From NCBI RefSeq assembly GCF_964355755.1, contig NC_092678.1:7846922-7910921 (forward strand): 64,000 nt of DNA. Reading direction: 5' to 3'. Source of the DNA: Antedon mediterranea (lineage: Eukaryota > Echinodermata > Crinoidea > Comatulida > Antedonidae). Below the pieces are notes generated by a model. The model did not search any database and was not told where the DNA came from. It saw only the letters and a program-made list of their open reading frames with translations. The position numbers and the translations under genes are program-made. Below, in pieces: positions 31,438 through 53,064 of this stretch; positions within the stretch are counted from its first letter, which is position 1; the number at the start of each line of letters is the position of its first letter.

Positions 31438-31766
31438 AAGGGCCTTCAAACTAGGGTATAACCTACTAATTAAAAGGATGGACATTTTCGGGATGCACAA
31501 TATAAAAACTAGACTACTGTTGCCATATCACGAACCACAACTGAAAAATATATTTTTTCCACCAGACCTAAAGTAATCCTTGGTCCGCCAAACTTGGCAG
31601 AATTCTTGAATTTTAATTTTTTTAAATTTGGCCATCATCTGGACACGATTTGGGTATTACAGTTTTGTTACTTATGACATTACGCCTTAGTATCATCTTT
31701 TTCATTATTGCCTTTTTACTTGATTTTTGGTTGATTAGTAAACAGTCAACTTTTGAGCATTGAACA

Positions 31767-34700
31767 ATGAACACCGCCGTATTTTTGCTCTGTTGTGTCT
31801 CGTTTATTTCATTTACTTACTCGTTTACCCCAACACAATATCCCTTTAATGATGATCACGAAGTGTTTTGGAGTGGATATGGATGCAATTGTGACAACAA
31901 TTTTCACCAATCTTTGTATAAATACGTGAATTTTAGCACAATAAGCTTAGGCCGGCAGAGCGAATTTCAAAGAATAGCATTACCGGTGTGTGAAGGGGTC
32001 TGTGTAGTCAGCTGTCCAGGTCAGTATGCAAATGTTAAATGGAGCCTAGTTGAAATGGAATATACAAAGCGTTCTATGAACAACTTTGTGCAATATTTTT
32101 TCTACTATTTTACCGATGCAGTCTACATTCGATTTATTCTTGACGACGATTTTCATCCGATACCATTTTCTTATTCAAAATGTGCAATAACCAGCTGTCC
32201 AGGTCAGTATGTTAAGTGGAACCAAGTCGAATTGGAACTTACACAACGTTCTATGAACAACTTTGTGCAATACTTTTTCTACTATTTTAATGATGCTGTT
32301 TACATTGACGACGATTTTCATCCGATACCTATTTATTATTCAAAATGTGCAATAACAATAACTGGCCTTACATCATTACAAGTACGAAAGAAATCGAAGT
32401 TTAAATTCCTTGGCAGGGCTGTGTCATACTATTCAAATTCGGTTAGTACTCTACGTATTTGGTCTGTTGTACTTGGAGGGGACATAGAAGTCAATCCTGG
32501 CCCGAATGCTACTAATTCGAACAACAAAAGTAGCTCTTTAAAGGTGTACTACCAAAACGTTCGTAGTGTAAAAAATAAAATGGAATCATATAAATCGGAA
32601 TTGTTTAGTCACATGTGCACAAGATACATAGACGTTGTAGCATTAACTGAAACCTGGTTAAATAACACTGTAATTGATTGTGAACTGTCTTTAGATGGCT
32701 TTAATCTATATCGCAGGGACCGGCAAGAGGACAAGAGAGGCGGTGGAGTTTTACTCTTAATTAACAACAAATACAGGTCGTGTCGTCTCATTAAGTTTGA
32801 AGATGAAAGTCAAGAACTAATGTGGGTCAAAATTCAACTGTCTAGAAAAAAATGTTTAATTATTGGTATATATTATCGCCCACCATCGGCACCTAAATCT
32901 CAAATCGATCGTCTCTGTGAATCTATAAACAATGTGCAATATGAATTTCAGGGTTTCAATCATGACGTTATGTTATTAGGAGATTTTAATCTACCTGAGA
33001 TAAAATGGCGTTTGAATAGTTATAATAAGTGCAATATTGTAGAATGTGAAGCTCCCGACAACTCCAATGGCAAATTTTTTATAGATAATATTTTACAGGG
33101 TAATAATTTTAATCAATTTGTATATTTTCCGACATGTGCCGATCACACTCTTGATCTTGTCTTGTGCAATACTATATGCCATGAAGTTTCATTCGGTGAA
33201 GATATTTTCACTTCTGATCACTGTGCAATAAATTTTAAATATCCTATAGAGTTTAACAAACACCTTATCAATAATGACGATCGATTGTTATATAATTTTA
33301 AAAAACTTAACAAATTAGATTTTATACAAACACTTTCTCATATTCCTTGGAATTTACTTGATCTTGCCGTTGACATTGATGAGGCAGTTAATTTATTTTA
33401 TGATTTTATTTTTGCTACTATCAAAGATCTTGTCCCTGTTTTCAGACCTAAGAGAAAACTCCCACCATGGTTTGATAATGAGCTCTACACTGCTTTGAAA
33501 TCTAAAGAATCATATTTTAGAGAAAAAAAACGTAATCCAAATAGGTTAAATATTGAAAATTTTCGATTTGCTAGGTCAAATTTTAAACGACTTTGTAGAT
33601 TTAAGTATCGTACCTATGTTAATTCATTATGTTGTAATTTAAGTTGTAATCCGAAACGTTTTTGGTCTTGGATAAAATCCTCAAGAAAAAATAATAATAA
33701 CATTCCTTCGGAACTACATTTTAATAATCAGTCAGCTTACACTGTAAAAGACAAAGCAAACTTACTTAACCAATTTTTTTTTTATTCTGTTTTTAGTCCT
33801 GTTAACAAAGATTTGGATGTTCCTAATCTTCCTGAATATCCCATCGATTGCTTATCTAAACTTGAGTTTAATCAGGAGGTTATAGAAAAGCACATTAATG
33901 AAATTGATTCTCATAAGGCTTCAGGTAATGATGGTCTAAGTAATATTGTTTTGTCTTTAGCTGCCAAACCTCTTTCTTTCCCTTGTAAAATTTTATTTGA
34001 AAGATGCATTTCTGAGAAACGTTTTCCGATAAAATGGAAGCAAGCTAACGTGTGCCCTATCTTTAAAGCTGGTTCTAAATCTGATGTACGCAATTATAGA
34101 CCGGTTTCATTGTTGCCAACTATTTCTAAAGTTTTTGAAAAAATTGTTCACGACCAAATTTTTAAACATATATCACCAGTTATTAGTGACCATCAACACG
34201 GATTTTACCCAGGAAGGTCTTGTGAAACAAATTTGTCTGTTCTGTTGTCACATGCGTATGACGCAATAAATGCAAAAGGGCAATGCGAAGTTGTATATAC
34301 AGACATGGCTAAAGCCTTTGACAGGGTCTCCCATAAGTTGCTCTTGTTTAAACTTCAACAATTTGGTCTAAATCACGATTTAATTTTATTTTTTACAAGT
34401 TATTTATCGGACAGGTTTCAGAGAGTCACTTTTGATGGTAACGCGTCTGAATGGCTTCCAGTTTTATCTGGAGTGCCTCAGGGGTCTATTTTGGGGCCTC
34501 TTTTTTTCATTATGTTTATTAACGATTTTTCCTTTGTTCCTCGTCATTCTAATGTTCTTATGTTTGCTGACGATATCAAATTATTTAAGTCTATACAAAC
34601 TTTAAATGATATGTTGTTGTTACAAGAAGACGTTGACAGACTCATTCACTGGTGCGACACTTGGAATATGTCAGTCAATGCCTCTAAATGCAAATCAATG

Positions 34701-35369
34701 TCTTTTACTCTTAAGAAAAAACCCATCTATTTTGACTTTTATATTAAGAATATTATACTTGAAAGAGTCTCTGTTCACAAAGACCTTGGTGTTTTTTTAG
34801 ATAGTTCATTAACCTTCTGTAAACATATTGATTTTATAGTCTCTAAATGCAATAGACTTTTGGGTTTTCTTTGGAGACATTGCAGACATATCAACGATAA
34901 AAAGGCATTAGTTATTTTATACAAATCTTTAGTTAGGTCGAATCTTGAATTCTGCAGTGTTATTTTTAACTCTATTTCTCTTGCCCAGTCTTCTAGATTA
35001 CAAAGTGTACAGAACAAGTTTTGTCGATTTTATGTGCGTAAATTTGGTTCTATTAGCAAAGACGTTCTTTTTAATTTAGCGGGTAGGCGTAAGTTATTTG
35101 ATTTAATTTTTCTTTTTAAGGCTGTGAACTCAATTTTTCATGGTAATTTTGAAGTGTACTTTCCTATTTCTGTTCCTCAATATCAATTGCGTTATCCTGC
35201 TTTATTTTCTATATCAAGAGGGAGGGTAAATATTACTAAAAATGGTTTTGTTAATCGTTTGCCTAAGTTATACCATTCACTATGTAAAATTGATGGATCT
35301 GTTGATATTTTTTTTGATTCCCTTGCTTGTTTCCGTCACAAGGTTTTGTCTAATGTCAGTAATATTTAA
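31767..35369 (+). CDS. LINE polyprotein: signal peptide, duplicated module, 2A, endonuclease, reverse transcriptase
   Basis: 1,200 residues without a stop. Residues 1-19 (MNTAVFLLCCVSFISFTYS) look like a signal peptide. Residues about 83-142 and 144-197 are a tandem duplication of a Cys/aromatic module (each with SCPGQY, QRSMNNFVQYFFYYF or similar, DDDFHPIP, SKCAIT). Residues 239-246 read DIEVNPGP, a perfect 2A ribosome-skipping motif. The break would fall between Gly245 and Pro246 and would separate the secretory-type leader from the enzymes. The AP-like endonuclease follows (YYQNVRSV, TETWL near 294, GDFNLPE near 405, SDHCAI near 483). The reverse transcriptase comes next (NYRPVSLL near 775, SGVPQGSILGPL, catalytic FADD near 933). 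2A motifs are established in LINEs of sea urchins and other invertebrates. ORF integrity suggests it could be active. Confidence 0.9.
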   Translation: MNTAVFLLCCVSFISFTYSFTPTQYPFNDDHEVFWSGYGCNCDNNFHQSLYKYVNFSTISLGRQSEFQRIALPVCEGVCVVSCPGQYANVKWSLVEMEYTKRSMNNFVQYFFYYFTDAVYIRFILDDDFHPIPFSYSKCAITSCPGQYVKWNQVELELTQRSMNNFVQYFFYYFNDAVYIDDDFHPIPIYYSKCAITITGLTSLQVRKKSKFKFLGRAVSYYSNSVSTLRIWSVVLGGDIEVNPGPNATNSNNKSSSLKVYYQNVRSVKNKMESYKSELFSHMCTRYIDVVALTETWLNNTVIDCELSLDGFNLYRRDRQEDKRGGGVLLLINNKYRSCRLIKFEDESQELMWVKIQLSRKKCLIIGIYYRPPSAPKSQIDRLCESINNVQYEFQGFNHDVMLLGDFNLPEIKWRLNSYNKCNIVECEAPDNSNGKFFIDNILQGNNFNQFVYFPTCADHTLDLVLCNTICHEVSFGEDIFTSDHCAINFKYPIEFNKHLINNDDRLLYNFKKLNKLDFIQTLSHIPWNLLDLAVDIDEAVNLFYDFIFATIKDLVPVFRPKRKLPPWFDNELYTALKSKESYFREKKRNPNRLNIENFRFARSNFKRLCRFKYRTYVNSLCCNLSCNPKRFWSWIKSSRKNNNNIPSELHFNNQSAYTVKDKANLLNQFFFYSVFSPVNKDLDVPNLPEYPIDCLSKLEFNQEVIEKHINEIDSHKASGNDGLSNIVLSLAAKPLSFPCKILFERCISEKRFPIKWKQANVCPIFKAGSKSDVRNYRPVSLLPTISKVFEKIVHDQIFKHISPVISDHQHGFYPGRSCETNLSVLLSHAYDAINAKGQCEVVYTDMAKAFDRVSHKLLLFKLQQFGLNHDLILFFTSYLSDRFQRVTFDGNASEWLPVLSGVPQGSILGPLFFIMFINDFSFVPRHSNVLMFADDIKLFKSIQTLNDMLLLQEDVDRLIHWCDTWNMSVNASKCKSMSFTLKKKPIYFDFYIKNIILERVSVHKDLGVFLDSSLTFCKHIDFIVSKCNRLLGFLWRHCRHINDKKALVILYKSLVRSNLEFCSVIFNSISLAQSSRLQSVQNKFCRFYVRKFGSISKDVLFNLAGRRKLFDLIFLFKAVNSIFHGNFEVYFPISVPQYQLRYPALFSISRGRVNITKNGFVNRLPKLYHSLCKIDGSVDIFFDSLACFRHKVLSNVSNI

Positions 35370-35920
35370 AGATGTATTGTCCCTTTGACTAATTCCAAAA
35401 AAATAAAAAATAATAGATTTCGAAAAAAGGTGGGTCATTTTGAAGTATCATAATAGTTATTAACTATCACCAAAAATTTTTCGAAAAAAAAAAAATTTAA
35501 CTGAAATACAGACGTTTTTTTGGTAAAAAAATAACTTTGACTTCCAGTCAAAGTTTTCAATCAAAACATATCCCATAATGAAACGCGCTTGTTTGGCTAC
35601 TCTGTATGCATAATCATAAAACTTCCTCATGATCTGTGTGAAAATACCTTCTTAACCGTGACGAGTTGTAAACAATCCTAATTTAGCATATGCATAATGC
35701 GTACTCATGGTTTGAAATCTTTGTTTACTTTCGCTCGTGACGATTTTCCAGATGAAATGTAATCAAACTAATTTACCTGTTAATTATGTAAACTTGTTGT
35801 TTTTGGCTCAAATTTTCGACTTAAAGTGAATAACTTTAATATTACTTTGATATGGCCACTTTAAATTTAGAATATTTTGACCTTCATTTTTTTGTGTTTC
35901 AAGGGACAATACATCTTTAA
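35366..35920. mobile_element. TTAA-type MITE on the LINE stop codon
   Basis: The left end TTAAAGATGTATTGTCCCTT and right end AAGGGACAATACATCTTTAA are inverted copies. TTAA stands at both edges (35366-35369 and 35917-35920). Its TAA is the stop codon of the LINE ORF. Shorter copies lie at 52307-52613 and 58102-58206, with a partial one at 56773. Confidence 0.85.
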
Positions 35921-36055
35921 ATGTTGTCTTGTTATCTGTTGATTTTTGCTTGTATATTATATGTTATATTTTACGACTTTCAGCCCTGTTAATGGTGACG
36001 TTTGGTCACTGTAGGGTGATGATGAAATAAAATAAAAAAAAAAAAAAAAAAATAA

Positions 36056-52306: not shown

Positions 52307-52613
52307 TTAAAGATGTATTGTCCTTTTGACTACTAATTAAAAAAAAAATAAAAAATAACAGATTTCGAAAAAAGGTGGATCATTTTGAAGTATTATAATA
52401 GTTATTAACTATCACCAAAAATATGTTGAAAAAAAAATCATTTAACTGAAATACAGACGTTTTTTGTTAAAAAAATAACTTTGACTTGTTGCTTTTGGCT
52501 TGAATTTTCGACTTAAAAGTGAATAACTCTAATATTACTTTGATATGGCTAATTTAAATTTAGAATATTTTGACCTTCATTTTTGTGTATTTCAAGGGAC
52601 AATGCATCTTTAA
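52307..52613. mobile_element. TTAA-type MITE, short copy
   Basis: Ends TTAAAGATGTATTGTCC and GGGACAATGCATCTTTAA with TTAA at both edges. Collinear with 35366-35920 but lacking about 250 bp of the middle. In acetyltransferase intron 1. Confidence 0.85.
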
Positions 52614-53064
52614 ATAGTGTACATGTAATAATGTTTAATCTGTAAATAAGCATACATTCTTAGTTTGGGGTTTCTACTGGCTTGAAATTTCCTAAATATG
52701 ACCCCAATCTCCAACCCCCCCCCCCCTGGGTCAAAACGCCCAGAGCCAAAATGGTCCTGGGATGAAATGTTTCTAATTCATTAACATACTACTCTACTCC
52801 CCAAAAAGTTGATTTTTAAGTTGTTGTGGCCAAGGATCGGTGATTCATTCTAGGCATCAAGTAATTTGAAAAAAGATATTGAGATTATGGTTAAAAAGTG
52901 CAAGATTTTAGTTCAGTGGCATGAGAGCTTGCAGTTGGGTAAAATTGAAAGCCTCACTAATCCGTACTGGACTGCTTTATTCTAGTAATGTTACAATAGT
53001 GTACCCTATTACCTACACCTACAGTACTCCTTATTTTGTATATTTAATGTAATGTGCAGTATAC

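What the first reader, a model, noticed from the sequence alone, without database searches (positions are those of the whole stretch)
31767..35369. Intact LINE ORF with signal peptide, duplicated leader module and perfect 2A motif
Seen: a hydrophobic N-terminus, two tandem copies of a about 55-60 residue Cys/aromatic module, then DIEVNPGP (residues 239-246), directly followed by endonuclease and RT. Known: 2A motifs cause ribosome skipping and have been described in non-LTR retrotransposons of sea urchin and other invertebrates, some of them acting as signal-sequence/2A hybrids. Inference: one mRNA would give a leader of about 245 residues aimed at the secretory pathway plus a cytosolic retrotransposition enzyme. 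I do not know the duplicated leader module from any family, so the leader may be a separate, secreted product.
Basis: partly seen in the sequence, partly recalled or inferred. Interest (0 to 1): 0.85.

Follow-up and report, generated by a model that had tools for sequence, protein, structure and literature searches.

The report
Signal-peptide leaders skipped off LINE enzymes
A young jumping gene makes one long protein whose first 245 residues look like a secreted leader and are probably released by a virus-like 2A ribosome-skipping signal before the copying enzyme is made; at least 14 other jumping-gene families in the same genome share this layout, so it looks like a widespread strategy and not an oddity of one copy.

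Summary
The window holds a 1200-residue LINE ORF (31767-35369): a hydrophobic start, a leader with an 81%-identical tandem duplication (61 and 55 residues), DIEVNPGP at residues 239-246, then endonuclease and RT. Four further intact copies lie elsewhere in the genome, with leaders 95-100% identical.

Two things were added. (1) Every 5'-complete copy starts 0-24 nt before the leader ATG, so the leader belongs to the element and opens at its first AUG; a transcript start downstream of it is unlikely. (2) The layout is general here. The 2A codon pattern occurs 97 times genome-wide (reversed control 0); p14=H and p14=S variants add 37 and 31. All 15 LINE families with a readable leader begin with a signal-peptide-like segment (3 of 32 control ORFs do). 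Most share a ~30-residue pre-2A context, while the leaders between do not resemble each other.

Best explanation: SRP takes the translating LINE mRNA to the ER, 2A releases the leader, and the same ribosome makes cytosolic EN-RT. Skipping, secretion and expression are untested; the leader's own function is unknown. 2A in LINEs and 2A/signal hybrids are known; I found no paper on long signal-peptide leaders across LINE families, but Odon 2013 and Rao 2025 could not be read.

The parts
31743..31766 (+). Element 5' end / 5'UTR (CAGTCAACTTTTGAGCATTGAACA, 24 nt, no upstream ATG)
   Evidence: Shared with L021 in unrelated flanks; the other copies keep only the last 3-8 nt of it before the ATG
31767..35369 (+). 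Single LINE ORF, 1200 aa: leader, 2A, endonuclease, RT
31767..31823 (+). Signal-peptide-like N-terminus (residues 1-19, possible cleavage after TYS)
   Evidence: Max 11-residue KD 2.92 in first 32 residues, shuffle p 0.004; cleavage site by the -3/-1 rule, inference
31824..32501 (+). Leader (residues 20-245), no known family
   Evidence: No match above curated Pfam cut-off, no PDB match; AlphaFold2 pLDDT 26, uninformative
32009..32191 (+). Leader module copy 1 (61 aa)
32192..32356 (+). Leader module copy 2 (55 aa)
   Evidence: 81.4% nt identity to copy 1; pN/pS 0.41
32388..32480 (+). Extended pre-2A context KKSKFKFLGRAVSYYSNSVSTLRIWSVVLGG
   Evidence: Alignment A1, 17 rows
32481..32504 (+). 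2A/StopGo octapeptide DIEVNPGP (residues 239-246); predicted skip between Gly245 and Pro246
32595..33230 (+). AP-type endonuclease domain
   Evidence: PF03372/PF14529
34077..34715 (+). Reverse transcriptase domain (FADD present)
   Evidence: PF00078
35371..35915 (+). Unrelated insertion in the 3'UTR: TIR (GATGTATTGTCCCTT...) element, TTTAAA duplicated
   Evidence: Empty site in L020-L023
35995..36056 (+). 3' end of element: GTGACGTTTGGTCAC hairpin and A-rich tail
   Evidence: Common 3' boundary in 11 copies

Best explanation
A recently active non-LTR retrotransposon translated from its first AUG. The signal-peptide-like N-terminus brings the ribosome and the LINE mRNA to the ER; the leader is threaded into the ER; the conserved 2A context stalls the ribosome and the Gly245-Pro246 bond is skipped, freeing the leader; the same ribosome then makes the signal-less endonuclease-RT in the cytosol, close to its own RNA. 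Shown: the anatomy, the copies, the 5' ends, the recurrence of signal-like start plus 2A in at least 15 LINE families, and net constraint on the leader. Inferred: SRP use, ER entry, skipping, and the cytosolic fate of the enzyme. I think it most likely that what is selected is (a) ER-side translation and (b) a detachable leader; what the leader does in the ER or outside is open.
For: All 5'-complete copies of this family (8) and of two others (F36: 4 insertions; F40: 4) begin 0-24 nt before the leader ATG, in unrelated flanks. 15 of 15 families with a readable leader have a hydrophobic segment (max 11-residue KD at least 2.2) in the first 32 residues, against 3 of 32 control ORFs (Fisher p 1e-9, independence assumed); LINE ORFs without 2A lack it in 3 of 4 readable cases (L103, L105, L109; L104 borderline at 2.06). 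Leader pN/pS 0.48 pooled over 7 families, p 0.014; 0.47 with the module duplication, p 0.003. Shared ~30-residue pre-2A context. Published: full 2A activity needs over 30 native residues, and natural core variants such as p14=H are active (PMC12846837); a signal-bearing protein upstream of 2A enters the ER while the downstream product stays cytosolic or nuclear when skipping is efficient (PMC2978324); Ty1 retrotransposon RNA is translated with SRP at the ER and needs it (PMC3945221).
Against: No expression, translation or localisation data. Signal peptides judged by hydropathy only, no SignalP. Leader constraint is weaker than in the enzyme (window vs L023 Ka/Ks 0.46 against 0.07 for EN), and NG86 ignores transition bias. 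In fusions with a signal sequence some contexts block 2A in vivo (PMC2978324), so an ER-targeted fusion is possible. Families share an ancestor, so 15 is not 15 independent events. Some 2A families here have no distal signal peptide (L035 and L061 types have the hydrophobic run at the 2A itself).
Confidence: 0.5

Rival explanations
1. The leader is a secreted or ER-resident effector in its own right (for example acting on host defence or on neighbouring cells); ER docking of the mRNA is a side effect.
For: Signal-like start; Cys-rich leaders (10 Cys in this one, 10 and 12 in F36 and F40); leaders differ between families and evolve faster than the enzyme; module duplication kept in frame with pN/pS 0.41.
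Against: No homologue among host genes, Pfam or PDB; Cys count is low in some families (F37 has 1, F53 and F75 have 2); no data on secretion.
Confidence: 0.2
2. Dual targeting as in sea urchin NLR 2A signals: incomplete skipping yields both a released leader with cytosolic enzyme and an ER-targeted leader-enzyme fusion, which limits the amount of active enzyme.
For: Roulston 2016 shows such partition for SpNLR2A (PMC4981915); signal context can inhibit 2A in cells (PMC2978324).
Against: The 2A core is canonical and its context conserved, which suggests efficient skipping; in SpNLR the signal and the 2A are the same 26 residues, here they are about 220 residues apart.
Confidence: 0.15
3. The leader is a remnant or passenger: an ORF1 replacement without function, the hydrophobic start serving only translation or 2A context.
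For: Weak constraint; no domain found; AlphaFold2 gives no confident fold (shallow alignment).
Against: Leader kept open and full length in all young intact copies; signal-like starts recur in families whose leaders do not visibly align; pooled pN/pS below 1.
Confidence: 0.1
4. The hydrophobic N-terminus targets the nascent chain elsewhere (mitochondria) or acts as an uncleaved membrane anchor for the leader.
For: Hydropathy alone cannot separate cleavable signal, anchor and some import signals.
Against: No Arg/Lys-rich amphipathic start in this family (0 basic residues in the first 25).
Confidence: 0.05

Closest known systems
2A-bearing APE-type non-LTR retrotransposons (Odon et al. 2013; L1Tc of Trypanosoma cruzi, Heras et al. 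2006; cited in PMC4981915)
   Same: Canonical D[VI]ExNPGP in frame upstream of an AP endonuclease and RT
   Different: Here a 78-246 residue leader with a signal-peptide-like start precedes the 2A in many families; whether those papers describe such leaders could not be read (not held)
SpNLR2A signal-sequence/2A hybrids of sea urchin NLR genes (Roulston et al. 2016, PMC4981915)
   Same: Signal function and 2A skipping on one N-terminal product
   Different: There one 26-residue segment does both, in cellular genes; here the signal and the 2A are separated by a long leader, in LINEs. The short L035-type leaders in this genome (45 residues) are nearer to that design
Viral StopGo classes (PMC12846837)
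   Same: Core with p12=D and p11=G; p14=H variants also occur in LINEs here
   Different: The extended YYSNxxxTF context and the p14=S octapeptides are not among the classes or variants named in the text I read
Ty1 Gag translated through SRP/ER (PMC3945221)
   Same: Precedent for a retrotransposon mRNA translated at the ER
   Different: LTR element, no 2A, Gag itself is the translocated product
Jockey-superfamily ORF1 types I-V (PMC4120745)
   Same: Module 5' of the endonuclease; some families here have a PHD finger after the 2A (type III-like)
   Different: No RRM, CCHC, esterase or PHD in this family's leader

Membership tests
Non-LTR retrotransposon (LINE), APE type | AP endonuclease followed by RT in one ORF | tested here: met
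   PF03372, PF14529, PF00078
Non-LTR retrotransposon (LINE), APE type | Dispersed copies, variable 5' truncation, common A-rich 3' end, no LTR | tested here: met
Non-LTR retrotransposon (LINE), APE type | Target-site duplication | tested here: inconclusive
   None of 6 bp or more found for the window copy; not tested systematically in the others
CR1 / L2 / Jockey clade | Position in RT phylogeny | not tested
   No reference RT set at hand
2A/StopGo element | (D/G/C/N)(V/I)ExNPGP octapeptide | tested here: met
   DIEVNPGP; 97 genome hits of the pattern against 0 reversed
2A/StopGo element | Conserved upstream context; G at p11 when p12 is D | tested here: met
   G precedes D in all 17 rows of A1
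2A/StopGo element | Measured peptide-bond skipping | not testable with these tools
   Needs a translation assay
Signal peptide | Hydrophobic h-region near the N-terminus with small residues at -3/-1 | tested here: met
   Hydropathy test; -3 Thr, -1 Ser by eye
Signal peptide | ER translocation or cleavage; SignalP score | not testable with these tools
   No SignalP and no bench assay available
SpNLR2A-type dual-targeting signal | Signal and 2A in the same short N-terminal segment | tested here: not met
   Signal at residues 1-19, 2A at 239-246
LINE ORF1 types I-IV | RRM/CCHC, Tnp22, PHD or esterase domain | tested here: not met
   No Pfam domain in the leader above cut-off

The most novel reading that the evidence does not exclude
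LINEs of this animal have evolved a modular front end (signal peptide, fast-changing leader, extended 2A) that moves retrotransposon translation to the ER membrane and releases a secreted leader, used in place of or ahead of ORF1 across at least 15 families, and including p14=S StopGo octapeptides not previously listed.
Probability: 0.4. Interest if true: 0.8.

Novelty: new variant of a known kind. Interest (0 to 1): 0.6.

Why it matters
How LINE proteins find their own RNA and whether LINEs use membranes are open questions. A genome where many LINE families keep a detachable signal-peptide leader points to ER-side translation as a repeated part of the LINE life cycle, and to a possible class of retrotransposon-encoded secreted proteins. 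It also gives a set of cellular StopGo sequences, with a distinct upstream context and variant cores, that can be tested in standard reporter assays.

Tried and rejected
Ribozyme or other Rfam RNA at the 5' end: none. Known domain or structure for the leader: none in Pfam or PDB; AlphaFold2 on five near-identical copies gave pLDDT 26 and was not searched further. Host gene as source of the leader: only LINE copies matched in the genome. Viral contigs carrying the same 2A context: none. Mitochondrial code to place the animal: no COX1 match in the assembly. N-glycosylation sequon as the conserved pre-2A feature: NxS/T occurs there in several families but not in this one, rejected. Very short 5'UTR as a general rule: true for three families, but F42 and F38 have about 95-107 and 65 nt. 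In-frame fusion of a LINE 2A leader to a Gypsy-like pol frame (L071) was treated as an insertion, not a fusion gene. One sister copy (L031) has a broken leader frame; I joined its two frames for the hydropathy test and left it out of the final count of 15; its pre-2A row remains in alignment A1.

Full report
OBSERVATION. The ORF at 31767-35369 is real, open and 1200 residues long. The window lies at C9:7846922-7910921 of a 354-Mb, 18-contig genome.

COPIES. A genome search with the leader gives 17 matches, which on reading are copies of this LINE or a sister LINE. Besides the window, four intact ORFs of about 1200 aa lie on C3 (two), C7 and C10, with leaders 100, 99, 99 and 95% identical. The family has therefore moved recently. 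The tandem duplication is in all of them and, as far as it is preserved, in an older copy 90% identical to the window (L029), so it is a family trait. The window copy carries a later 545-bp TIR insertion just after its stop codon; other copies show the empty site.

THE LEADER IS PART OF THE ELEMENT, FROM ITS FIRST AUG. Homology between copies stops 0-24 nt before the leader ATG in all 8 copies that reach this end, in unrelated flanks, while truncated copies stop at scattered positions (31836-32393). Two other families behave alike: F36 (L036, L049, L082, L083) and F40 (L040, L054, L059, L099) begin 0-14 nt before their leader ATG. Families F42 and F38 have 5'UTRs of about 95-107 and 65 nt that share CGTnGTGAGCGGACGTGTT. 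The 24-nt 5'UTR of the window copy holds no ATG.

THE LAYOUT IS WIDESPREAD. The codon pattern for D[VI]ExNPGP occurs 97 times, the reversed pattern never. Sites read here fall in many LINE families with the 2A ahead of an endonuclease (this family, F36, F40, F42, F38, F53, F68, F75), ahead of a PHD finger plus endonuclease (F34, F37; the PHD is just under Pfam's cut-off), or ahead of a 235-residue coiled-coil-like ORF (L035/L048). While collecting LINE ORFs as controls I met variant cores: GDVHSNPGP (L111), GDISPNPGP (L106, L110), GDISSNPGP (L108). Genome-wide, the pattern with H at p14 has 37 hits and the pattern allowing S (WSN codons) at p14 has 31, reversed controls 0. p14=H was shown active at over 95% in a viral context (PMC12846837); p14=S is not among the variants listed there and is untested.

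SIGNAL-LIKE START. In 15 of 15 families with a readable leader the first 32 residues contain an 11-residue stretch with mean Kyte-Doolittle at least 2.2; 3 of 32 ATG ORFs of 70 aa or more in the window do. In the ten canonical families shuffles of the leader reach the observed value with p 0.0005-0.057. Among LINE ORFs without 2A, three of four readable starts are hydrophilic and one is borderline. Between the start and the last ~35 residues I saw no resemblance between families (by eye, not by a formal search). The families are related by their enzymes, so these are not independent events; the point is that the start and the 2A stay while the middle changes.

PRE-2A CONTEXT. The last 35-40 residues align as [basic]..xPxxYYSNxxxTFxxxLxxxGD[IV]ExNPGP (A1, 17 rows; one row, L031, has NLGP and comes from a broken copy). 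This length fits the ribosome tunnel; full FMDV activity needs over 30 native residues (PMC12846837).

SELECTION. NG86 pN/pS of leaders pooled over seven families is 0.48 (p 0.014); between the two modules 0.41 (p 0.036); together 0.47 (p 0.003). The downstream part pooled is 0.34. Between the window and L023 the leader is at Ka/Ks 0.46 and the endonuclease at 0.07. The leader thus behaves as a translated and constrained sequence, but loosely. Transition bias and post-insertion changes blur these values.

HOW IT LIKELY WORKS. Signal recognition brings the ribosome and LINE mRNA to the ER; the leader enters; 2A breaks the chain; the enzyme follows in the cytosol. Each step has precedent: signal-bearing proteins upstream of 2A enter the ER and the downstream product stays in cytosol or nucleus when skipping is efficient, while some upstream contexts inhibit skipping on ER-bound ribosomes (PMC2978324); a native, conserved context may be the remedy for this (inference). 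Ty1 RNA is translated with SRP at the ER (PMC3945221). SpNLR2A shows a combined signal and 2A (PMC4981915). None of it has been tested on this element.

KNOWN OR NEW. LINEs with 2A are known, so this is a new variant and not a new kind. In the papers I could read, long signal-peptide leaders ahead of LINE 2A are not described; the papers most likely to contain them (Odon 2013; Luke 2014; Rao 2025) are not held.

Noticed in passing
Genome-wide (G000), e.g. L106, L108, L111, L115, L118, L119: LINE ORFs with non-canonical StopGo cores: p14=H (37 hits) and p14=S-type (31 hits), reversed patterns 0; p14=S is not in the variant list of PMC12846837.
   Followed up: partly
L042/L086/L087/L088 and L038/L091 5' ends: Two LINE families with different leaders share a 5'UTR start CGTnGTGAGCGGACGTGTT with a possible GAGCGG/CCGCTC stem; no Rfam match, folding z -0.5 and -1.8.
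   Followed up: partly
window 31743-31750 and L042 5'UTR: CAGTCAAC occurs at the 5' end of this family and about 29 nt before the F42 ATG; possibly an initiator-like start.
   Followed up: no
L071 (C3:15585900-15587100): A LINE 2A leader with endonuclease lies in frame behind a Gypsy-like RNase H frame, giving a 1945-aa open frame; probably a chance in-frame insertion.
   Followed up: no
window 35371-35915 and 52307-52615: TIR element (GATGTATTGTCCCTT) of 545 bp inserted at TTTAAA in the LINE 3'UTR; a shorter relative at 52307-52615.
   Followed up: yes
L035, L048, L056, L061: Second 2A type: 45-69 residue leader with the hydrophobic run directly at the 2A, ahead of a coiled-coil-like ORF; nearer to SpNLR2A.
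   Followed up: partly
L108, L117: 2A-variant LINEs with a hydrophobic stretch upstream but no in-frame ATG before it; a non-AUG start or a missed upstream exon or frame.
   Followed up: no
window 35995-36009: Perfect GTGAC-GTTTG-GTCAC inverted repeat close to the 3' end, kept in the copies shown; possible RT recognition hairpin.
   Followed up: no
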